Shown piece by piece: positions 12,568 to 50,736 of a stretch of 50,771 nt of DNA; position 1 is the first letter of the stretch, and each line of letters starts with the position of its first letter. Source of the DNA: Brachyspira sp. G79 (lineage in GTDB: Bacteria; Spirochaetota; Brachyspiria; Brachyspirales; Brachyspiraceae); assembly GCF_002379365.1 (NCBI RefSeq), contig NZ_JQIU01000008.1, positions 1,471,688 to 1,522,458 on the forward strand, given 5' to 3'. The notes under the pieces were generated by a model. That model made no database searches. It worked only from the letters and a program-made list of their open reading frames with translations, and was not told the origin of the DNA. The position numbers were made by a program, and so were the translations under genes.

Positions 12568-13377
12568 ATGATAAAGGCATTAACTATAGCAGGATTTGAC
12601 GGTTCGGGAGGAGCTGGAATACAGGCAGATTTAAAAACTTTTTCGGCATTAGGCTGTTACGGGATGTGCGTACTTACTGCACTACCCGTACAAAACACAC
12701 AGGGAGTGAGAAACTGTTATGGTATAGAATTAAAAGCCATAGAAGAACAGTTATACTGCATATTTGATGACATCATACCAGACGCCATTAAAATAGGAAT
12801 GCTTTTTAATAGTAATATAATAAAATTAGTAGCGGACTTCTTGAAAACTCATGCCAAAAATATACCTATTATAGTTGATCCTGTTATGGTGGCAAAAAGC
12901 GGGGACAGGCTATTATTAGAAGAGGCTGTTGCTAGTTTGAAAAGCCGTATACTTCCAATATCTACTGTAGTTACTCCAAATATACCAGAGGCTGAAGATT
13001 TAACTTCAAGAAAAATAAAAACCGATGAAGATATGATTAATGCTGCAAAAGAAATACTAGATATGGGGGCAAAAAATGTTATGCTTAAGGGCGGACATAT
13101 GGAAGGAGAGCTTTCGAGAGATTTGTTTATGAACAGAGAAGGCAAAGAGTTTTTGGATGCCGTTAGAATAGACACAAAAAACACACATGGCACAGGCTGT
13201 ACATTATCGGCAGCTATTTGCAGTTATATAGCACATGGAAAAACTCCGCTTGAAGCCTGCAAACTCGGCAAAGAATATTTATTCAATGCCTTACAATCAG
13301 CCAAAACCGACAGCGTTGGAAAGGGTCATGGTCCAGTAAATCATTTCTATGACGCTTGGAAGCATTTGGATATATAA
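12568..13377 (+). CDS. thiD: Hydroxymethylpyrimidine/phosphomethylpyrimidine kinase
   Basis: Phosphorylates HMP and HMP-P to HMP-PP for thiamine synthesis or salvage. The 269 residues match the family length. Diagnostic segments are IAGFDGSGGAGIQADLKTF at the N-terminus, VDPVMVAKSGDRLL in the middle, and the anion-hole/catalytic THGTGCTLSAAI near residue 210. The AGGATAAAAGCT ribosome region and the 12-base gap suggest co-transcription with the upstream regulator gene. No other thi genes are in the window, so the protein may serve HMP salvage. Confidence 0.95.
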   Translation: MIKALTIAGFDGSGGAGIQADLKTFSALGCYGMCVLTALPVQNTQGVRNCYGIELKAIEEQLYCIFDDIIPDAIKIGMLFNSNIIKLVADFLKTHAKNIPIIVDPVMVAKSGDRLLLEEAVASLKSRILPISTVVTPNIPEAEDLTSRKIKTDEDMINAAKEILDMGAKNVMLKGGHMEGELSRDLFMNREGKEFLDAVRIDTKNTHGTGCTLSAAICSYIAHGKTPLEACKLGKEYLFNALQSAKTDSVGKGHGPVNHFYDAWKHLDI

Positions 13378-13392
13378 TAAATAAATTGTTTT

Positions 13393-13455
13393 AATAAAAA
13401 TTGTGAGCCTCTGGGAAGTTTACTTGACAGAGCCTTAAAGCGAGCAATTTTTATT
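13393..13455. terminator. Bidirectional terminator-like nested hairpin
   Basis: AATAAAAATTG (13393-13403) and CAATTTTTATT (13445-13455) form an 11-bp stem. Inside, CTCTG (13410-13414) pairs with CAGAG (13428-13432). It sits between the convergent thiD and mod genes. The 41-base interior is GC-richer than its surroundings, so a small structured RNA is an alternative. Confidence 0.5.
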
Positions 13456-13482
13456 TATAATAAAAGCATTTGGTTTTATAAT

Positions 13483-15381
13483 TTATAAAACAATTTTTAC
13501 ATTATCTTTATACTGCTGTAAAGACACATTAATAGTAATAGTCCAGCCGTCAATATATACCATACCGCTTTCTATCATATCTTTAAACTTCTGCTTGTTC
13601 TCATCGTTTTTTATAAGAATTTCAGAGTTAGTAATATAATATCTTTTTATATTATCATCTTCTATCATATAAGCACAATTTTCTATAATAGGTGTAAGTT
13701 TAGACACTGGAGAGTTTAAACCTACATTAATAATCATATTATATATTCTGCTTAAATCAGTTACCCCATTTAATAAAAGTATTATCTGCTTGTTTTCATC
13801 TTGTTTTTCAGTATTGATATCATGCAAATCAAAAACCTTATAACCTATATCAATTTTTTTATCATCAAACATATTATTGCTTTCTTTTAGGTTTTGAATT
13901 ATTTTCTCCCCAGCCCTATTAACACGTTCGACAGTGATTGAAGAAATCACAGGCTCAAAGTTATTATCAATACAAAAATCATAAGCAGCCGATTTTTCTT
14001 TTTTAATTTCCTCATCAATCTGACAAAGAATAAATTTTCTGTTTCCGCCGTCTTCCGCATTAATCTCCATCACCGCATGTGCTGTAGTACCCGACCCAGC
14101 GAAAAAGTCGAGAATAATACTTTCTTCAAATTCATTACTAGAAAGTTTAGTTATAAGTTTAATTAAATTTAGTGGTTTAGGTGTATCAAAAATTTTTTTA
14201 TTTTCAAATATTGAAAGTATTTCTTTTGTGGCATCAGTTGTAGTACCATATTCACTAAATATAGTTCTAGTTTTTATAATTTTATTTTTATCTAACATTT
14301 CATCAAAATATATAACTTCATATGGTGTCAATCTATTCTTTGATATTTTCCAATAAATATGATCTTTATCTAATTTCTCTGGTTTTTTACGCCAACAACC
14401 ATCTTCTCCATTTGGAGCAATCGGATAAAAATCATTTCCATTTGGATCTTTAATTTTATAATATAGAGTTGGTCTATCAATCCTTAAAGAATGATTTCCC
14501 CATTTTTCAAGTTTTAATAACTTTGCTTTTCTACCATTTATAATATGTGTATATTCTTTTTCATCATGTTTTTCTTTAATATCATTTATATACCAATCTT
14601 TTTTAGAATAAGATAAAATATACTCATGTTCTTTTGAAAAATCATCTGAATCTTGACTTCCACCTTTCTTTTTTTGCCATATAATATTTTGTATAAAATT
14701 ATCCTCGCCGAAAATTTCGTCGCATAAAAGTTTTAAATTCGCCTGTTCATTATCGTCTATGCTTATAAAAATGGCTCCGTCATCTGTTAATAAATCTCTT
14801 GCTAGTTTTAATCTAGGGTACATAAATGTAAGCCAGCCGTTATGCGATTTTTTGCTTCTTTTAAAGATAAACTCCATTCTGTCATATTCTTCTTTTCCTA
14901 TATCCTGAAGTCCTAAAACCTCAAGTTCTTCTTTATCAAATCTATCTGGATATAAAAAGTTATCAGTATTAGTATTATAAGGAGGGTCTATATATATACA
15001 TTTTATTTTACCGCTGTAGTATTTTTTTAATATTTTTAAGGAGTCTAAATTGTCGCCTTTTATTATCATGTTTTCTGTTTCATCAAAGTTTTTACTTAAC
15101 TTTTCATTGATAATCAATTCTTTTTCTGTTTTTTGTCTGTATTTAGCCTTTGCCAAATTTCTGCCTATAAAGTTTAAACCGTATCCGTTTTCTTTATAGT
15201 TTATTGCTGACTTACTATTTAAAACTCTCTTTAATTCTTCAATATTTATTTCACCGTCTTTATAGATAGAAGGATAATTATTTTTTAAAAACTCTAAAAG
15301 CTGATTTTGTTCTTCATCTATTATTTCTCTTGTGTCTATTACATCAAATCCCTGTTTTTCAAATTCTTCCTTTTTAGTCAT
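13483..15381 (-). CDS. Type III restriction-modification methyltransferase (Mod)
   Basis: A 632-residue beta-class DNA adenine N6-methyltransferase. The catalytic DPPYNTNTDNF (DPPY at residues 132-135) precedes the AdoMet-binding DFFAGSGTTAHAV near residue 430, the order typical of Mod subunits. The region between them would hold the target-recognition domain. The reading frame is intact, so DNA methylation may persist even though the partner res gene is frameshifted. Its ATG at 15381 overlaps the res stop by eight bases (minus strand), which implies coupled translation. Here res comes first and mod second, the reverse of the most familiar order. Confidence 0.92.
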   Translation of the reverse strand: MTKKEEFEKQGFDVIDTREIIDEEQNQLLEFLKNNYPSIYKDGEINIEELKRVLNSKSAINYKENGYGLNFIGRNLAKAKYRQKTEKELIINEKLSKNFDETENMIIKGDNLDSLKILKKYYSGKIKCIYIDPPYNTNTDNFLYPDRFDKEELEVLGLQDIGKEEYDRMEFIFKRSKKSHNGWLTFMYPRLKLARDLLTDDGAIFISIDDNEQANLKLLCDEIFGEDNFIQNIIWQKKKGGSQDSDDFSKEHEYILSYSKKDWYINDIKEKHDEKEYTHIINGRKAKLLKLEKWGNHSLRIDRPTLYYKIKDPNGNDFYPIAPNGEDGCWRKKPEKLDKDHIYWKISKNRLTPYEVIYFDEMLDKNKIIKTRTIFSEYGTTTDATKEILSIFENKKIFDTPKPLNLIKLITKLSSNEFEESIILDFFAGSGTTAHAVMEINAEDGGNRKFILCQIDEEIKKEKSAAYDFCIDNNFEPVISSITVERVNRAGEKIIQNLKESNNMFDDKKIDIGYKVFDLHDINTEKQDENKQIILLLNGVTDLSRIYNMIINVGLNSPVSKLTPIIENCAYMIEDDNIKRYYITNSEILIKNDENKQKFKDMIESGMVYIDGWTITINVSLQQYKDNVKIVL

Positions 15382-16855
15382 TATTTATTACCTCCTCTAT
15401 CATATCATAAAGCTGTGATTTATTTATTCTCTTCTTATAATAAACTTTAACATCATTTGAATTATTTTTATTTAGCTTTTCAAAAAATCTATATGCAAAA
15501 TCTATTTTTGATTTTTCATCTGCTGGTATTTCTTCTTCTGTATTATAGCCTTTGCTTTCAACTATTAAAAATATTTTCTTACTGTTATCTTTTTCTATTG
15601 CATAGCAAAAATCCGGACTGTAATTGCCTAAAGGTGTAGGTATTGAAAGTTTTGGCATTTTAGCAAATATTGTTATATTATTTACTTTAGGATCATTAAG
15701 TATTATGCTTCTTTCAAACATGCTGTCATATTCTATAATATCTTCAAATATCCATTCTTCCTTTAAACTGAAATTATCTGCTTTTTCCTGATTTTTTCCA
15801 AGACTTCCTGCTTCTAATTCATTTTTGAAATTTCCTTTTTTATCATACATTACATTAGGTTTTATTCTACCTTCTATAAAATTATATTCAATAAGGGTTT
15901 TCATATCTCCTATCAAGGCATTTTTTATTATAGATAATATTTCTGCTTTGGCATAATTAATATTGCTTTCTATTTTTTCTTTTAATTCTTTATTGATACC
16001 ATTTAATATTTTTACTATAAATGATATAGGCATTTTTGATTTTTCAGCCAATTCTCTAGCTAAAAATACATAATTAATATTTTCTTTATATTCATGAGAA
16101 CGCACTATTTCTTTATTTATAGAATTATCTTTTTCTAAATTATCCATATCCCAGACTAATTTTACTGTTTTAAGAGAGTTTTTTTCTATATCTGATTTGT
16201 TTATTTTTTCTATTATAGAGTTTAACAATATTTCTTCATTCTCCTCGTTTAGTTCATTTATATAATAATATGCCTCTTTAGATATATAATCCCATAATTT
16301 TTTAAACTCTTCTATCTTTTCACCTTTTATTTTTAGATTTTTTCTTTCTCTTAATTTATTACCGTTTGTAATATAATGCTCCATATCCTCATCAAAAATT
16401 TTATAAGCATATTCAAGCATTGATTTTTCTTCTTTATCTGTAATTTTATCTTTTAATTGAGAAAGTTTATTAAAATAATCATCTGCCTTTTTATAAATAT
16501 CAAGTCCTTTATCATCAACCTTTTCTAAATCTATTATTAAGTCATAATATAATAAAAACTTTTCAAACTTTCGTATATTAGTTTCTATATTATTGACTTT
16601 TAATCTGATGTTTAAATCTGTTCTTGTAAACTCATCATATAAAACAGGTGAATTATCAACTATCTCTTTTTGAAGACTTTTAATAAAATCTGCCTCATCA
16701 CCAGAAACAACCACATCTAAATTATTGCATTGCCAAAAACTATTTTTATCTTTAAATGTATCTATAGTTAATCTCTCACCTTTCTGATTAACACATATTC
16801 TTAACCCCCTTCCAACCTGCTGTATTTTTGATGTATGGCTTCCTCTGTTGCTCAA
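15374..16855 (-). pseudogene. Type III restriction endonuclease (Res), C-terminal part after frameshift
   Basis: This is the downstream part of res. In the same frame the coding sequence continues upstream to about 17262: ...FETQTRFIFSVWALQEGWDNPNVFTICKLSNRG (broken here into pieces: FIFSVWALQEGWDNP, then SNRGSHTSKIQQVGRGLRI, helicase motif VI). The ATG at 16855 is therefore internal. The C-terminal nuclease pattern is preserved: YSPDFCYAI followed by FLIVESKGYN, a PD-(D/E)xK site. The part is intact apart from the frameshift that separates it from the helicase N-terminus at 17264-17270. Confidence 0.85.
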
Positions 16856-17220
16856 TTTACAAATAGTAAATACATTAGGATTATCCCAACCCTCTTGTAA
16901 TGCCCAAACAGAAAATATAAATCTAGTCTGTGTTTCAAAGGATAGTAATTTTTCCTTTGATTTTAATATTAAATCTACTCCATGTCTTATTTTCTCATCA
17001 TCATTTCCTTTATCACCTGAAAAATATCCTTCATGAACTTTTAATTGTCCGTCCTCATAATCTTTATATAAATATTCTAAATACTCTTTATATTTTTCAT
17101 TATATTTTAATTCATTTATAGTTTTTTCTCTAATTATTTTATACTCTTCTTCAAATATTTTTTTTACATCTGTGTATTTTTCAGCATCTTCTAAATCTCT
17201 TCTATATTCTGCAATATACC

Positions 17221-18297
17221 TTATAAAAAATAATGATAAAGCTTTAATACCCTGAAGAAATAATTTTTTTCTTTTTCAAAATGAAGTTCTATACTCTCTC
17301 TTATCATCAATCTTATATTATCTTCTTCTAATAAATATTCAGCAAAATACTGCTCTCCATCTGATAAAATAATATTGGATTCTTTACTCTCTTTTTTTTC
17401 ATAATTTATTTTTATTATTTCTTCACCGTTAAATTTATCTCCAACAGTTAAATCTTTATAAACAATTTCACTATTAATATTACTTTTTATTTTTACTATA
17501 TCTTTTTCTATAGATAAAATTATGTCTTTATTATTAGAAGTTTCATTATAGTATACAGTTATTTTTTTTACCAAGTTATTTTTAAATGATGATACTCCAT
17601 CAAGTTTATATGCTATATTTGAAAGTTCTATTATATGATCTTTTTTATCTTTACTTTTTGGAAATGTAGCACCAAATCTCAAAAAATAATTATTAAATCC
17701 ATTAAAATATTTAGAAAATGCTTCGCCTGCAAATTTATGGGGTTCATCAATAATAATAATAGGATTAAGTTCTTTCAAAGCATCAAGATAAGTTATAATT
17801 CTATCATTAAAGAAAGTTCCCTCTATTATCCTATTTAATTTATTTTCTTTATTAGTAAATGAATGAGGAGTTAATACTAATACAGAAAAATTATCATTAT
17901 CTAAAAATCTGTTTATAACTGATATAGAACCATCATATATATTTACTTCTATTTCTCTTTCCCTGAAATTTGAATATATTGATTTAAAATAGTCTTTTGT
18001 TATTTCAAAATTTTTTTTAGTACCCTCTCTTATAGCTAAAGACGGCACCAATATAATGAATTTATTATATCCAAAATTATGATTAAGCTCAAACATAATT
18101 TTGATAAATGTAAAAGTTTTTCCTGTACCTGTTTCCATTAATATATCTATGTTTTTACTATTAGATACTTTATCCTGCTTTATGCATTTATTTAATGAAT
18201 ACTCAAAACTAAATCCGTCTTCTAAATTATTGAATATTGATACTATATTTTGTATGCATTCTTCTTGATATTTTTGTTCTGTAAATTGTAACTGCAT
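17221..18297 (-). pseudogene. Type III restriction endonuclease (Res), N-terminal helicase part
   Basis: The first 358 residues of a Res subunit, the ATP-dependent translocase/helicase of a type III system. Motif I METGTGKT is at residues 54-61 and the DEPH box follows in IIIIDEPHKF. The frame ends at 17221 with an aberrant tail (NYFFRVLKLYHYFL). Restoring one A in the seven-A run (complement of 17264-17270) would give KLFLQGIKALSLFFIRYIAE, the expected Res sequence, and join the downstream part. As read, no full-length restriction enzyme is made unless slippage occurs. Confidence 0.88.
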
Positions 18298-18377
18298 TAT
18301 TTAACTTCTCTAAATTATTGTGTACTATTTCGTTACGATTATCGTCAAGTTTACATAATATATTTAGAGATTTATTT

Positions 18378-19490
18378 TTACTTCTTCTTAGGCAAATGCT
18401 TTATAATCTGACCTTCAAGCTGTATTGATTTTTGTTTAGCATCATAGCCCAAAATCTTACCGTACACTTCTATATAGTTTTTAGGCTCTAATGTTACAGT
18501 TACATTCACTATCAAATCGGCAACACCAGCAATATCTTTGTCATTAGTGTCGTAAATTAATATTCTTGCTTTCTTTTTAGGTATGCCATCAATGTTAGTC
18601 TGAGTTACTCTGTTTACATCGGCTTTCCATTTCACATATCCGCCATTGTATAGATCGTAATTCTCTGCAACTGTAAGATAGCTAGGACTTTCTCTGAATA
18701 TATTGTAGTCTGGTGCTATTATAAACTCTTTTAACACTCTAAATCTCTCTTTTAGGTATTCGTTAATATCGCTTTTTAATGCACCGTTTATTATCATAAC
18801 AGCTTCATTAACAGATGCACTTCTCATATTGTTTTTAGCCTTATCAAACATCTCGGCTACTTCACGCGGTGAATATGTAGGACTTTTTGCACTCTCTGGA
18901 ATCTTTCCATCTTCAAGCCCTTCAAATAAGTAAACATTCTCTAGTTTTTCTCTTAACTCTTTTTGGTCTTTGTCAAGAAGTACATATCTTATCTTTGGGT
19001 ATAATCTGTCTATTGCAATATATGAAGCAAATGTGAGTATAAATGCTATTGGAATGAGAAGAATAAATTTTGATACTGCTATTTTCTTTTTGCCTAGTAA
19101 ATATGCTCTGGGATTAATCTCATCGCCTCTGGCATTATTAGTTAAAAATCTTATTCTCTCTATATTGTCTTTTGCAACTTTATTTTCAGGCTCTAAATCT
19201 AATATTCTAAAATATTCTCTCAAAGCATTTTCTCTATGCCCGTTATTGAGACTTATATACGCCTTTGCAAGCATACCGTTAATACAAAAACTGTCTTCTC
19301 TAAGAGCTTTTCTTGAAAGTTCTTCAGCACCATAAAAATCTTTTAAAAATATATCAGCAAATGAAAGCATAGCAAGTGCATCTGCATCATTTACAATTCT
19401 AGATTTATTACTTAGAAGAAACTCTTTCGCTTTTTTATACTTCTTTTTTTTGATTAAAGTATATGCTGTAGAGGCTATTTTGCTTTTCAT
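18378..19490 (-). CDS. TPR-repeat membrane-anchored protein
   Basis: 370 residues. The N-terminal ~110 residues contain tetratricopeptide-like helix pairs (KKYKKAKEFLL, FYGAEELSRKAL, ENALREYFRILDLEPEN). One membrane segment (FILLIPIAFILTFASYIAI) follows at about 142-160. The C-terminal ~200 residues form a soluble domain ending in a beta-rich part (VTVTLEPKNYIEVYGKILGY...). It probably is a scaffold with the TPR on one side of the membrane. No named family is recognised. It is transcribed away from the iron-transport cluster. Confidence 0.7.
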   Translation of the reverse strand: MKSKIASTAYTLIKKKKYKKAKEFLLSNKSRIVNDADALAMLSFADIFLKDFYGAEELSRKALREDSFCINGMLAKAYISLNNGHRENALREYFRILDLEPENKVAKDNIERIRFLTNNARGDEINPRAYLLGKKKIAVSKFILLIPIAFILTFASYIAIDRLYPKIRYVLLDKDQKELREKLENVYLFEGLEDGKIPESAKSPTYSPREVAEMFDKAKNNMRSASVNEAVMIINGALKSDINEYLKERFRVLKEFIIAPDYNIFRESPSYLTVAENYDLYNGGYVKWKADVNRVTQTNIDGIPKKKARILIYDTNDKDIAGVADLIVNVTVTLEPKNYIEVYGKILGYDAKQKSIQLEGQIIKHLPKKK

Positions 19491-19616
19491 AATATAGATT
19501 ACAGTCCTAGTATTAAAATGTTAACATAATTATCGATATTATGATAACTTTTATTAGCATTTTTTTATTATGTAAACTTATATATTATATTATTATAAAA
19601 AACAAGGCATTTTTTA

Positions 19617-19645
19617 TTGACAAAAAAACAATATGATATATTTTA
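19617..19645 (+). promoter_or_regulatory. Probable promoter of the iron-transport cluster
   Basis: TTGACA at 19617-19622 with an AT-rich -10 region about 16-17 bases later (TATTTT). The AT-rich 19500-19600 stretch could hold regulator sites, but I see no clear Fur box. Confidence 0.4.
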
Positions 19646-19671
19646 TTGCAAAATAATTTGGGGATAAAGCC

Positions 19672-20707
19672 ATGTATTTTTTTAATAATTTAATACGAAC
19701 AGTTATGTTATTAGCGGTATTTGTAATATTATTTTCATGCAGTAAAGATACTCCTAAAAAATCATCATTAGTAATATACTCTCCATCATCAAGAGATTTT
19801 ATAGACCCATTGATAGAAGATTTTAAAAGCAAAAATCCAAATATAGATGTGGAAGTTATTATAGCAGGTACAGGTGAATTAATAAAAAGAATAGAAACAG
19901 AACAAAATGATCCTCTATGTGATGTTTTAATGGCTGCTAATATTAATTTGGTTAAAAATAATCAGAATCTATTTGAAAATTACACAACAACAAATGAAAA
20001 TGAAATAATAGACAGCTATAAAAATGCAGAAGGTTCAATGACTAGATTTATGATAAGTCCAAGTGTATTAATAGTTAATACCAATATTATAGGCGATATA
20101 AAAATAGAAGGATACAGTGATTTAACTAATGAAAAGTTAAAAGGAAAAATAGCTTTTAATGATCCTTCTTCGTCATCATCATCTTTTAAACATTTAGTTA
20201 CTATACTATATACTATGGGTAAAGATGATATAAATAATGCTTGGGATTATATAGAAAAATTATGTTCTAATTTAGACGGTAAATTATTAGCAGGTTCTTC
20301 TGCCGTATATAAAGGAGTCGCTGACAGTGAATATGCTGTAGGACTTACTTTTGAAAATGCTGCTGCTAATTATGTAGCTGCTGGATCACCTGTAAAATTA
20401 GTATATATGAAAGAAGGTGTTATAATGGAGCCTGCTGGAATATACATTATAAAAAATGCTAAAAAACTTAGAAAATGCCAAAAAATTTGTAGATTATATG
20501 ACTAGCTTTGATACTCAAAAGAAAATGAATGATGAGCTTAATGCAAGAGCTATAAGAAAAGATTTAGGAAGCTCCCCTATTTTAGTAAATATAAATGATA
20601 TTAATGCTATTACAGATAATGATGAATTAGAGGAAATAGATAATTTTGTGAAAGAAAATCAGGAAAATTGGCTTGAGCGATTCAAAACCATTATAGAAAA
20701 TTTATAA
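19672..20707 (+). pseudogene. Iron-binding ABC transporter lipoprotein 1 (BitA/B/C-like), frameshifted
   Basis: Extracytoplasmic ferric-iron-type binding protein. A lipoprotein signal ends in VILFSC, and YSPSSRDFIDPLIEDFKSKNP starts the mature domain, as in FbpA/Bit-type proteins. After VYKGVADSEYAVGLTFENAAAN the frame breaks: the six-A run at 20461-20466 would need five to give NAKNLENAKKFVDYMTS, the sequence seen in both downstream paralogues. As written, the first frame ends at 20505 and the rest reads on from 20456 to 20707. The lost tail is about 65 residues. The Brachyspira hyodysenteriae bit system has three such lipoproteins, matching this trio. Confidence 0.85.
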
Positions 20708-21748: not shown

Positions 21749-22753
21749 ATGAAAAAGATTATTTTATTATTTTTGATATTAACAATGATATTTGTACCTT
21801 CCTGCTCAAAAAAAGAAGATAATAAAAACAGTTTAGTAATTTATACGCCCGCAACTAGATTCTTTATTGACAGATTGGCAGAAGATTTTAAGCAAAAAAA
21901 TCCTGATATAAACGTAGAAATTATTATAGCTGGTACTGCTGAAATAATAAAAAGAATAGAAGCAGAAAAAAATGATCCTTTAGGCGATATATTTTTTGCT
22001 GCAAATGAAAATATACTTAAATACAATTCCAACCTTTTTGAAGAATATGTTTCAACAAATGCTGATAATGTATATGATGATTACAGAAGCAAAGAAAAAT
22101 ATATCACTGGTTTTATGCTAAGCCCAAGTGTATTAATAATAAATACAAATTTGATAAAAGATATAAAAATAGAAGGATATGCTGATTTACTTAATCCTGC
22201 ATTAAAAGGACAAATAGCATTCAATGATCCTACAACATCATCATCTTCTTTTGAACAGTTAGTTAATATGCTTTATGCTATGGGAGAAGGTAATCCAGAT
22301 AATGGCTGGGATTATGTTGAGAAATTATATGCTAATTTGGACGGCAAACTTTTAAGTAGTTCTTCTGCAGTATATAAAGGAGTGGCTGACAGCGAATATG
22401 CAGTTGGGCTTACATTTGAAAGTGCCGCTGCAAACTATATACATACAGGCTCTCCTATAGAAGTGGTATATATGAAAGAGGGAGTACTTACTAAAGCTCA
22501 CTCTATGGCTATAATAAAAAATGCCAAACATTTAGAAAATGCTAAAAAATTTGTTGACTATGTAACAAGCTATGAAGCCCAGAAAATTATTAATGATGAG
22601 TTGTTTACAAGAGCAATAATAAAAAATTTAGAAGGCTCTGAAATACTTATACCACTTGAAAATATCAATGATATAAAAGAAGATGAAGAGATGGTTGATA
22701 AAAATAAAGATACTTGGCTAGAAAAGTTTAAAAATATAGTTACAGGCTCATAA
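21749..22753 (+). CDS. Iron-binding ABC transporter lipoprotein 3 (BitA/B/C-like)
   Basis: 334 residues, third paralogue, with a lipoprotein signal ending FVPSC. It differs from the others at the ligand region: YIHTGSPIEVVYMKEGVLTKAHSM replaces the YAASGSPVKLVYMKEGVI form. This could reflect a different ligand or chelate. An AAAGAGG ribosome site precedes the ATG. The permease gene follows after 83 bases. Confidence 0.88.
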   Translation: MKKIILLFLILTMIFVPSCSKKEDNKNSLVIYTPATRFFIDRLAEDFKQKNPDINVEIIIAGTAEIIKRIEAEKNDPLGDIFFAANENILKYNSNLFEEYVSTNADNVYDDYRSKEKYITGFMLSPSVLIINTNLIKDIKIEGYADLLNPALKGQIAFNDPTTSSSSFEQLVNMLYAMGEGNPDNGWDYVEKLYANLDGKLLSSSSAVYKGVADSEYAVGLTFESAAANYIHTGSPIEVVYMKEGVLTKAHSMAIIKNAKHLENAKKFVDYVTSYEAQKIINDELFTRAIIKNLEGSEILIPLENINDIKEDEEMVDKNKDTWLEKFKNIVTGS

Positions 22754-22836
22754 ACATATATAGGCTATTATTTATATAAGCTGCTAAAAAATAGAAATAC
22801 ATAAATATAAAAAATATACTAATTAGAAGTATAATT

Positions 22837-24501
22837 ATGAAAAATAATATAAAATATTTTTTCAAAAAAATGGACTTTTGGACATATATTACTTTTTTAA
22901 TTGTTTTAATATTTGCTTTATTTTTAGTTTATCCGTTATTTTCTCTTTTTTTAAGCAGCTTTAAAGATATAAAAACAGATGCTTGGACATTAAATAATTT
23001 TATTAAATTCTTTACAAAAAAGTATTATTACAGTACATTAATTAATAGTTTTACAGTAACTATTTCAGTAACAATTCTTGCTGTATTGATAGGTACTCCT
23101 TTAGCATATTGTATGAAGATGTATAATATAAAAGGCAAAAAAGCAGCAGAAATATTAATAATAATATCTATGATGTCTCCTGCTTTTATAGGTGCCTATT
23201 CTTGGATACTGCTTCTTGGAAGAAATGGAGTTATAACTAGATTTTTTTCATATATAGGTATTAATATTCCTACAATATACGGTTTTGGAGGAATACTTTT
23301 AGTTTTTTCATTAAAGCTATATCCTTTTATATTTATGTATGTAAGCGGTGCTTTAAGCAAGATAGATGTTTCTCTTTTGGAGGCTTCAGAAAGTTTAGGA
23401 GCTTCTAGTTTTATAAGAAATATTACTGTTACTATACCTTTAATAAAACCTACTATACTATCAGCAAGTCTTATTGTATTTATGAATGCATTAGCTGATT
23501 TCGGTACTCCTATGCTCATAGGTGAGGGATACAGAACTATGCCTACTATGATATATTCTGAGTTTATAAGCGAGGTTGGAAGTAATGCTAATTTTTCTGC
23601 TTCTATGTCTGTTATAATGATAGTTATTACAACAATAATGTTTATTATTCAGAAATATATCGTAAGTAAAAAATCTTATGCTGCTAATTCTATAAATACT
23701 ATAAAACCAAAAAATATAAAAGGTATTAAATCAGTATTAATTCATCTATTTTTATATGTTTTAATATTTATTTCTTTACTTCCTCAAATAACAGTTATAT
23801 ATACTTCATTTCTTAAAACCAACAGATCAGTATTTACTAGCGAATACTCACTTGAAAGCTATATAACAATATTTCATTCACTAGCATCATCTATAAAAAA
23901 TACATATATATACGGCATAATCACAATTATATTAATAATCATAATAGGAATGCTTACAGCTTATATAACATCAAGAAGAAAAAATATATTAACCAATATA
24001 ATCGATATAGTATCAATGTTTCCATATGTAATACCTGGTTCAATACTAGGTATTACTTTTTTACTTGCATTTAATAAGCCGCCTATAATATTAACAGGAA
24101 CTTCTATAATCATTATAATATCATTGGTAATAAGAAGGCTTCCTTATACATTAAGATCAAGTTCTGCTATACTTTATCAAATAAATAAGAATATGGAAGA
24201 AGCTTCTATAAGTCTCGGAGCTTCTCAAATAAAAACTTTTTTTAATATCACAGCAAAATTAATGCTTTCTGGTGTATTATCAGGTGCTGTACTTAGCTGG
24301 ATTACAGTTATTAATGAATTAAGCTCTTCTATTATACTTTATACTACAAAATCGCGTACTATGTCTGTAGCTATTTATCAGGAAGTTATTAGAGCAAGCT
24401 ATGGAACTGCAGCTGCACTTTCTACTATACTTACATTTACTACTATTATATCGCTTATTATATTTTTTAAGATAAGCCGTCAGAAAGAAATAAGCCTATA
24501 A
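22837..24501 (+). CDS. Fused ABC iron-transport permease (two permease halves)
   Basis: 554 residues with about twelve membrane segments: two MalFG-like permease halves in one chain, as in FbpB-type iron transporters. Each half has its ATPase-docking EAA loop: LLEASESLGASSFIRNITV around residue 185 and EEASISLGASQIKTF around residue 455. In the described Brachyspira bit system two separate permeases (BitE, BitF) and an ATPase (BitD) accompany the lipoproteins. Here the two permeases appear as one gene and no ATPase gene follows. Confidence 0.88.
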   Translation: MKNNIKYFFKKMDFWTYITFLIVLIFALFLVYPLFSLFLSSFKDIKTDAWTLNNFIKFFTKKYYYSTLINSFTVTISVTILAVLIGTPLAYCMKMYNIKGKKAAEILIIISMMSPAFIGAYSWILLLGRNGVITRFFSYIGINIPTIYGFGGILLVFSLKLYPFIFMYVSGALSKIDVSLLEASESLGASSFIRNITVTIPLIKPTILSASLIVFMNALADFGTPMLIGEGYRTMPTMIYSEFISEVGSNANFSASMSVIMIVITTIMFIIQKYIVSKKSYAANSINTIKPKNIKGIKSVLIHLFLYVLIFISLLPQITVIYTSFLKTNRSVFTSEYSLESYITIFHSLASSIKNTYIYGIITIILIIIIGMLTAYITSRRKNILTNIIDIVSMFPYVIPGSILGITFLLAFNKPPIILTGTSIIIIISLVIRRLPYTLRSSSAILYQINKNMEEASISLGASQIKTFFNITAKLMLSGVLSGAVLSWITVINELSSSIILYTTKSRTMSVAIYQEVIRASYGTAAALSTILTFTTIISLIIFFKISRQKEISL

Positions 24502-49255: not shown

Positions 49256-49399
49256 GGAGTAATATGTGAATAAAAAAATTATTATTATTTTATCTTTACT
49301 TTCGGCATTTATGTTATCATCATGCGGAAGTAAACAATCTGGAGAATCAGAAAAAATAGCTTCAGGAAATTCTCAATTAACTAATTCAATGGGAAGTGT
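49256..49399 (+). repeat. 144-base identical segment, copy 1
   Basis: 49256-49399 is identical to 50022-50165, covering the ribosome site, the GTG start, the signal peptide and the first ~45 codons of the two lipoprotein genes. The next differences are synonymous. Confidence 0.9.
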
Positions 49400-50000
49400 T
49401 ATATTAAGAGATGAAGGTGCAGTTCCAGTAGTGATAGATAATGATAATAAAGAGGTTATTATAGAAGCAACAGTAAATGGTAAATATTTTAATACACCGT
49501 CAAGGCATCATGGAATAGTATTTAAAGGCGGAAAATATGGTGATAGAGGTGTATTGATAGGATTAGCAGATGAAAGAGAGTTTTATCAGGCTTTAAAAGA
49601 TATAGGATGTGTTGAAGGAACAAATTTAACTATGGAAGACATGAAATTATCTAAAGCTGTTAAAGGAGAGCCTTTAGATGTATTTGTAACTTGGGAAGGA
49701 TTAAATAAAGAAATTCCTTTTTCTGATATAATAAAATCTTCTGAAGAGAGAATGATGATAGTTAGATTTGGAGGAAATTTTGAAGCTGCTAAAGATAATA
49801 GAACAGGCTGCATATTATGTCTTGACAGCTGCCCTATTGCTATAACAAGTGATTCATCATTTACTACTGCTGAACTTGAAAACAAGGAGATAGATAAATA
49901 TATAAGAGAAGATGTACTTCCGCCTGACGGCACAAAAATTTCAGTTATGTTTAGAATGAAACAATTAGACTGCTGTTCTGTAGCAATAAATAATAATTAA
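49266..50000 (+). CDS. Lipoprotein of unknown function (tandem copy 1)
   Basis: 244 residues. The start is GTG, because the ATG two bases before it is followed at once by a stop; AAAAGGAG lies at 49252-49259. The signal peptide ends FMLSSC. The mature protein starts with a Ser/Gln/Gly-rich spacer. A conserved TGCILCLDSCP motif (C-x2-C-x3-C) lies near residue 183, and an extra CC pair is near the C-terminus. This could bind metal or form disulfides. No family is recognised. Confidence 0.75.
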   Translation: MNKKIIIILSLLSAFMLSSCGSKQSGESEKIASGNSQLTNSMGSVILRDEGAVPVVIDNDNKEVIIEATVNGKYFNTPSRHHGIVFKGGKYGDRGVLIGLADEREFYQALKDIGCVEGTNLTMEDMKLSKAVKGEPLDVFVTWEGLNKEIPFSDIIKSSEERMMIVRFGGNFEAAKDNRTGCILCLDSCPIAITSDSSFTTAELENKEIDKYIREDVLPPDGTKISVMFRMKQLDCCSVAINNN

Positions 50001-50021
50001 AATAAATTTATTTTATTAAAT

Positions 50022-50165
50022 GGAGTAATATGTGAATAAAAAAATTATTATTATTTTATCTTTACTTTCGGCATTTATGTTATCATCATGCGGAAGTAAA
50101 CAATCTGGAGAATCAGAAAAAATAGCTTCAGGAAATTCTCAATTAACTAATTCAATGGGAAGTGT
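50022..50165 (+). repeat. 144-base identical segment, copy 2
   Basis: Exact copy of 49256-49399 at a spacing of 766 bases. See the first copy. Confidence 0.9.
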
Positions 50166-50736
50166 CATATTAAGAGATGAAGGTGCAGTTCCTGTTGTAA
50201 TAGATAATGATAATAAAGAAGTTATTATAGAAGCAACAGTAAATGGTAAATATTTTAACACGCCTTCAAGACATCATGGTATAGTATTTAAAGGCGGAAA
50301 ATATGGAGATAGGGCTGTTTTAATAGGGCTAGCAGATGAAAGAGAAGTTTATCAGGCTTTAATTGATATAGGTGCAGTAGCTGGAAATAATCTTAAACTT
50401 AAAGATTATGGTAAAGTAACGGAATATGTAGATGGTCAGAAATTAGATGTATTTGTTACTTGGGATGGATTGGATAAAGAAATACCTTTTTCTGATATAA
50501 TAAAATCTTCAGAAGAAAGACCTGTTGATGTTAGATTTGGAGGAAATTTTGAAGCTGCTAAAGCTAATAGAACAGGCTGCATACTATGTCTTGACAGCTG
50601 TCCTATTGCAATAACAAGCGATGCTGCTTTTGCTACTAAAGAACTTGACAGTAAAAAAATAGATAAATATATAAGAGAAGACGTACTTCCTGCTGACGGA
50701 AGCAAAGTTTATGTAGTATTTAGAATAGCAGAATAA
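50032..50736 (+). CDS. Lipoprotein of unknown function (tandem copy 2)
   Basis: 234 residues, paralogue of the preceding gene with the same GTG start, signal peptide and TGCILCLDSCP motif. It lacks the C-terminal CC pair. The middle (about 105-140) is clearly diverged from copy 1 (IDIGAVAGNNLKLKDYGKVT), while the flanks are nearly identical. The gene ends 35 bases before the window edge. Confidence 0.75.
   Translation: MNKKIIIILSLLSAFMLSSCGSKQSGESEKIASGNSQLTNSMGSVILRDEGAVPVVIDNDNKEVIIEATVNGKYFNTPSRHHGIVFKGGKYGDRAVLIGLADEREVYQALIDIGAVAGNNLKLKDYGKVTEYVDGQKLDVFVTWDGLDKEIPFSDIIKSSEERPVDVRFGGNFEAAKANRTGCILCLDSCPIAITSDAAFATKELDSKKIDKYIREDVLPADGSKVYVVFRIAE

What the first reader, a model, noticed from the sequence alone, without database searches (positions are those of the whole stretch)
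15374..18297. Type III restriction gene frameshifted while its methyltransferase stays intact
res is split at a seven-A run, yet the helicase motif I, motif VI and PD-(D/E)xK nuclease site are otherwise intact, and mod has a full frame. Loss of cutting with kept methylation would leave an epigenetic regulator; a slippage-prone run could make restriction phase variable. The order res then mod with an eight-base overlap is also less usual.
Basis: partly seen in the sequence, partly recalled or inferred. Interest (0 to 1): 0.55.

Follow-up and report, generated by a model that had tools for sequence, protein, structure and literature searches.

The report
Broken restriction gene beside intact methylase
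A gut spirochaete carries a two-gene DNA-protection system whose cutting gene is interrupted by a one-base slip in a run of A's while the DNA-marking gene stays whole; this is a known kind of damage and may even be a read error, but it sits at a spot where related bacteria hold different such systems.

Summary
[quoted passage not shown] Res and Mod are otherwise EcoP15I-like; no other lesion was seen. B. alvinipulli and a Brachyspira MAG have an uninterrupted Res with a run one base longer. Loss of Res with Mod kept is in print for Haemophilus, Neisseria and Helicobacter. The run is not special: such runs are as dense in neighbouring intact genes, and no A/T run in the window exceeds eight. 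This assembly has pure run-length breaks in 5 of 308 compared genes, against 0 of 311 in B. murdochii, so chance mutation or read error suffices. B. intermedia, sequenced by 454, has an A-run break in res of another type III family at the same spot. Extra findings: mod's target-recognition region differs in all three close relatives; res moved between species; and 9 of 24 genomes hold type III systems of two families after the same conserved gene. Phase variation is not excluded but has no positive evidence.

The parts
17221..18297 (-). res, first piece: 358 aa with helicase motifs I and II; the last residues after the run are out of frame
17264..17270 (-). run of seven A where the res frame changes; one base shorter than in the two intact relatives
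15374..17260 (-). res, second piece: 628-aa open frame with helicase motif VI and PD-(D/E)xK nuclease; first possible start codon (ATG, GTG or TTG) is TTG 16855, with no ribosome-binding site visible before it
13483..15381 (-). mod, intact 632-aa type III adenine methyltransferase (DPPY then FAGSG)
14114..14692 (-). mod target-recognition region (about residues 230-422): no DNA match to either relative, while DNA on both sides matches at 90-93%
15374..15381 (-). 8-base overlap of res stop and mod start, also present in two relatives
18378..19490 (-). conserved gene 80 bases upstream of res on the same strand, boundary of the exchange spot; called TPR-like only from a weak, below cut-off NCBIfam match, no Pfam match
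12568..13377 (+). thiD-like gene (name from sequence, not from a family search), other boundary; also beside the spot in G008, G010 and G015

Best explanation
[quoted passage not shown] A one-base slip in a run of A's, of a kind this AT-rich genome shows at a low background rate, recently broke res. Res then ends after the first helicase half, without motif VI or the nuclease, so there is no cutting. Mod, with its own ribosome-binding site, is probably still made and methylates adenines at a site set by its own recognition region. Shown: the break, intact relatives, intact Mod frame, absence of a second frame lesion, transfer signal. Inferred: loss of cutting, continued methylation, and that the slip is in the DNA and is chance rather than a switch.
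For: Both pieces match one Res protein nearly end to end. Two relatives have the uninterrupted gene. Both pieces stayed under strong selection: dN 0.037-0.065 against dS 0.36-0.47, with no second frame lesion. Run-length frame breaks occur in 5 of 308 other genes of this assembly (18 partial matches set aside). res dS against the relatives (0.36-0.47) is about half that of the flanking TPR-like and thiD-like genes (0.85-1.1), which points to transfer. Precedents seen as passages: H. pylori strain 51 res with a missing base, H. influenzae and Neisseria res mutations with mod kept.
Against: Run-length breaks are more common here than in B. murdochii (5/308 against 0/311, Fisher p 0.03), which could mean read errors in this assembly. 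All breaks together do not differ significantly (7/308 against 3/311, p 0.22). No reads, expression or methylation data.
Confidence: 0.5

Rival explanations
1. Sequencing or assembly error at the A run: the living strain has an intact, ordinary type III system.
For: 5 of 7 broken genes in this assembly are pure A/T run-length changes against 0 of 3 in B. murdochii. B. intermedia PWS/A, identified by its 3,304,788-base chromosome and sequenced on the Roche 454 FLX at 14x, shows an A-run break in res and another in mod of a different type III family, the kind of error 454 is known for (from memory). N runs of 258-2867 bases (21 in a 351-kb sample) suggest a scaffolded draft, though some could be withheld stretches.
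Against: The sequencing method of this genome is unknown to me. A/T run lengths overall look like those of other Brachyspira, without a cut-off. The seven broken genes do not look essential, but seven are too few to judge (my reading of the sequences).
Confidence: 0.38
2. Reversible phase variation of restriction: slippage in the A run switches Res on and off in a population, with Mod kept on so that the chromosome stays protected.
For: Break lies exactly in a homopolymer; Mod is intact and has its own ribosome-binding site; res of a second type III family at the same spot has an A-run break in B. intermedia; 2 of 9 type III res genes at the spot are broken, against 1-2% of genes in general.
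Against: The run (7, or 8 in relatives) is no longer than many others in intact genes (78 runs of 7 or more in 35 ORFs). The B. intermedia case is from 454 reads, and its mod has a second frame change in the recognition region that I could not place at a run. In a gene as long as res about 5% would be hit by background alone. No phase-variable locus with so short an A run stood out in three literature listings, which were not read for that.
Confidence: 0.08
3. Rescue during expression: RNA polymerase or ribosome slips at the run, so some full-length Res is made from the shifted gene.
For: Frame slips in poly-A may be or are corrected this way in insect endosymbionts and at an 11-A run in Citrobacter (passages).
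Against: Those papers stress tracts of 9 to 12; here 7. RNA around the run folds no better than shuffles (z -1.25 for 75 bases downstream, +0.71 for 131 bases around it) and I see no ribosome-binding-site-like stimulator just before the run. The shift is absent in both close relatives.
Confidence: 0.04

Closest known systems
EcoP15I / EcoP1 type III restriction-modification
   Same: Mod and Res each align with the EcoP15I subunits (Mod E 3.4e-57, Res second piece E 1.4e-48, Res first piece E 2e-23)
   Different: gene order res then mod with an 8-base overlap (EcoP1 has mod, a 2-base gap, then res; passage); res broken here
Type III systems with mutated res and kept mod (H. influenzae modA, Neisseria modA11/12, H. 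pylori modH)
   Same: res damaged by frame shift, nonsense change or deletion with mod present; recognition region of mod varies between alleles (passages and abstract)
   Different: there mod itself carries repeats and switches; here mod has no such repeat and nothing shows switching or gene regulation
Second type III family (B) at the same Brachyspira spot
   Same: same position after the TPR-like gene and same gene order; mod recognition region differs between species in both families
   Different: B Res (G025 copy tested) matches PADLOC model PDLC03651, the window's pieces PDLC03647 and PDLC03649; the Mods still align locally at 38-45%, so the families are distinct but not unrelated

Membership tests
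Type III restriction-modification (EcoP15I-like) | Mod: adenine methyltransferase with DPPY before FxGxG and one target-recognition region | tested here: met
   PF01555 9.4e-44; PADLOC MTase_III 1.1e-137; motifs in order; variable region about residues 230-422
Type III restriction-modification (EcoP15I-like) | Res: helicase motor plus C-terminal PD-(D/E)xK nuclease in one chain | tested here: not met
   both parts present in the DNA but in two frames; one frame in both relatives (EcoP15I match of the L010 copy)
Type III restriction-modification (EcoP15I-like) | res and mod adjacent, same strand | tested here: met
   8-base overlap
Type III restriction-modification (EcoP15I-like) | methylates one adenine in a short asymmetric site; cuts 25-27 bases from the site | not testable with these tools
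   needs methylome and enzyme assay; cutting distance for EcoP1 from a passage
Phasevarion (phase-variable type III mod) | long repeat tract in mod whose length switches the frame | tested here: not met
   no A/T run of 9 or more, and one G/C run of 6 or more (37279, outside mod) in the window; longer-unit repeats were not scanned for separately
Phasevarion (phase-variable type III mod) | ON and OFF variants within a population and a methylation-dependent regulon | not testable with these tools
   no reads, no expression data
Phase-variable restriction gene | run longer or more unstable than ordinary runs in the same genome | tested here: not met
   length only: a run of 7, where the window has 113 runs of 7 or more and 24 of 8; instability itself was not testable

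The most novel reading that the evidence does not exclude
Brachyspira keeps an exchange site beside a conserved TPR-like gene where type III systems of two families are swapped, their recognition regions are replaced, and short A runs act as low-rate reversible switches of res, so that restriction can be turned off to accept DNA while methylation continues.
Probability: 0.07. Interest if true: 0.55.

Novelty: new member of a known kind. Interest (0 to 1): 0.22.

Why it matters
If the break is real it is one more case in which a type III system loses cutting and keeps marking, here in a spirochaete genus for which two literature searches listed no study of type III systems. The wider pattern may matter more: a fixed spot where restriction systems and recognition regions are exchanged across Brachyspira species. 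The comparison also warns that run-length breaks in AT-rich genomes should be checked in reads before a gene is called switched off.

Tried and rejected
Special slippage run: rejected, equal density of such runs in intact genes. Cut-off or compression of long runs in this assembly as proof of read error: not seen. Programmed ribosomal shift: no structure beyond shuffles, no conservation. Internal restart of the second Res piece: first ATG/GTG/TTG is TTG 16855, no ribosome-binding site visible, and it would lack motif I. Loss of Mod through broken coupling with res: unlikely, Mod has its own strong site. Promoter scan: 57 hits against 47 in shuffles, uninformative; no terminator-like site in 13200-19700. 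Virus collection: no relative. First gene-order script had the strand of loci wrong and was redone. The smaller frame-break surveys are superseded. I had also called the two type III families unrelated; their Mods align, so I now say distinct.

Full report
Where it is. The window lies in a genome (G000, 3,285,397 bases, 14 contigs) whose nearest named Res relatives are Brachyspira records; a more distant one (51%) is an Endomicrobium MAG. Among 26 genomes of the genus, 4 have a match to the second Res piece: this one, G002 and G015 at 91%, and G001 at 41%. The nearest genomes by flanking DNA are G008 and G010 (mostly 92-95% in the larger blocks). G010's length equals that published for B. murdochii 56-150 (3,241,804 bases). 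The species may be B. innocens, but that is a guess from memory and was not tested.

The observation. On the minus strand Res starts at ATG 18297 and runs 358 aa to a stop at 17221. The frame that continues Res is open from 17260 to 15374. Both pieces match type III Res: ResIII and EcoP15I residues 70-298 for the first, RE_endonuc and EcoP15I residues 396-967 for the second. Each matches its own part of one NCBIfam type III endonuclease model (positions 1-384 and 391-985 of 986, each piece below the whole-protein cut-off). The frame changes at a run of seven A (17264-17270). In B. alvinipulli ATCC 51933 (L010, G002) and in an uncultured Brachyspira MAG (L009, G015) the gene is uninterrupted, 976 and 974 aa, with a run one base longer there. 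Mod is whole (632 aa) and overlaps res by 8 bases, as in both relatives.

Is it special? A/T runs of seven or more are as dense in 35 hand-listed intact long ORFs (2.10 per kb; 29 of 35 have one) as in the res region (2.05 per kb). The window holds 113 such runs, 24 of length eight and none longer. I compared genes between a 951-kb sample of this genome and a 1.14-Mb sample of B. murdochii. Of 911 murdochii ORFs, 301 found a single-frame match here, 7 a frame-broken one and 18 a partial one that I set aside; the rest had no match good enough in the sample. In reverse, of 695 ORFs, 308 were single-frame, 3 broken and 8 partial. By my reading of the alignments, five of the seven breaks here are pure A/T run-length changes; one is an A inserted next to a run, and one gene has several lesions. 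None of the three murdochii breaks is a single-base run-length change (one is in an AT repeat). Fisher p is 0.03 for run-length breaks and 0.22 for all breaks. At that rate a gene as long as res has about a 5% chance of such a break. This says the break needs no special cause. It does not say whether the cause is mutation or read error.

A calibrating case. G009 is B. intermedia PWS/A by its 3,304,788-base chromosome; its paper describes Roche 454 FLX sequencing at 14x (passage). After the same TPR-like gene it has a type III system of a different family. Its res changes frame at an A run one base shorter than in an intact relative. Its mod has two frame changes: one at an A run one base shorter, and one within the recognition region, whose cause I could not place because that region does not align. 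A-run breaks are what 454 error looks like; they are also what a shared weakness of AT-rich genes would look like. The N runs in the present genome (21 of 258-2867 bases in a 351-kb sample) suggest a draft and keep error a live rival.

How old is it? Both res pieces show strong purifying selection against both relatives (dN 0.037-0.065, dS 0.36-0.47) and no second frame lesion. If real, the break is recent.

Where the system came from. Synonymous divergence of res against the two relatives is 0.36-0.47, while the flanking TPR-like and thiD-like genes give 0.85-1.1 (thiD compared with one of the two). res therefore appears to have moved between species after they split. In mod, 30-column blocks of the alignment are 83-100% identical outside a central stretch, 63-73% in one block at its edge and 7-47% within it, for all three species pairs. 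The stretch corresponds to about residues 230-422 and has no DNA match to either relative: the recognition region was exchanged. The same pattern is seen in three mods of the second family.

The exchange spot. The TPR-like gene occurs in 24 of 26 Brachyspira genomes, and I read what follows it in all 24, some cut short by contig ends. Type III family A follows in 3 (G000, G002, G015), type III family B in 6 (G004, G009, G012, G022, G024, G025), and a type I methylase with specificity gene in 1 (G010; PADLOC). The other 14 hold other, unidentified or ordinary genes. Of the nine type III res genes two are broken, both at A runs (G000, G009); the other seven are single frames of 901-976 aa. G012 against G013 is a clear occupied and empty pair: the same TPR-like and phosphatase-like genes (the latter named from sequence) are 94 bases apart in G013 and are separated by res-mod in G012.

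How it would work. Res cut off after its first helicase half cannot translocate or cleave, by analogy with EcoP15I; the second piece has no common start codon before TTG 16855. Mod has a strong ribosome-binding site of its own, so methylation without cutting is the expected state. That Mod is made, and that it regulates anything, is inference.

Known cases. Passages of three papers state the same situation: the type III review says res mutations can make the enzyme non-functional in phase-variable systems (PMC3874151); inactivating res mutations are reported with H. influenzae and Neisseria modA (PMC2667262); and H. pylori strain 51 has a res with a missing base (PMC3230613). The exchange of recognition domains is the subject of PMC3311624 (abstract and outline). 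For Brachyspira, searches for restriction-modification (7 papers) and methylome (3 papers; nine distinct in all) listed no study of type III systems in this genus by title and abstract start; one of the nine was opened, for passages. The B. intermedia genome paper mentions several restriction-related genes as species-specific (passage).

Verdict. A correct observation of an ordinary event, with an open question whether it exists outside the assembly. The mobile, recognition-swapping setting is the more interesting part.

Noticed in passing
window 18378-19490 and L006, L007, L038-L049, L179-L187: What follows a conserved TPR-like gene varies: type III systems of two families in 9 of 24 genomes, type I methylase plus specificity gene in one, varied unidentified or ordinary genes in 14.
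   Followed up: partly
Sequenced by 454.
   Followed up: partly
window 19672-20707: First of three tandem solute-binding-protein genes is also frame-broken near 20480, at a short A run one base longer than in B. murdochii.
   Followed up: partly
window 22753-22837: The MAG relative (L009) has an ABC-transporter-type ATPase gene between the binding-protein genes and the permease; here the permease follows directly.
   Followed up: no
window 49266-50736: Two lipoprotein-like ORFs in tandem with nearly identical first halves and more diverged second halves.
   Followed up: no
L039 6811-8115; L043 10925-15296: ORFs at the exchange spot in G008 (434 aa) and G007 (551 and 811 aa) match no PADLOC model; only the 551-aa one has a Pfam match (pentapeptide repeats). 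Possible undescribed defence genes.
   Followed up: no
L184 4794-6718: In G016 an ATPase with a weak, below cut-off match to PtuA and a small following gene lie a few genes away from the TPR-like gene.
   Followed up: no
whole window: No A/T run longer than 8 in 50.8 kb of AT-rich DNA; 8 runs of nine and 1 of ten in a 351-kb sample of the genome.
   Followed up: partly
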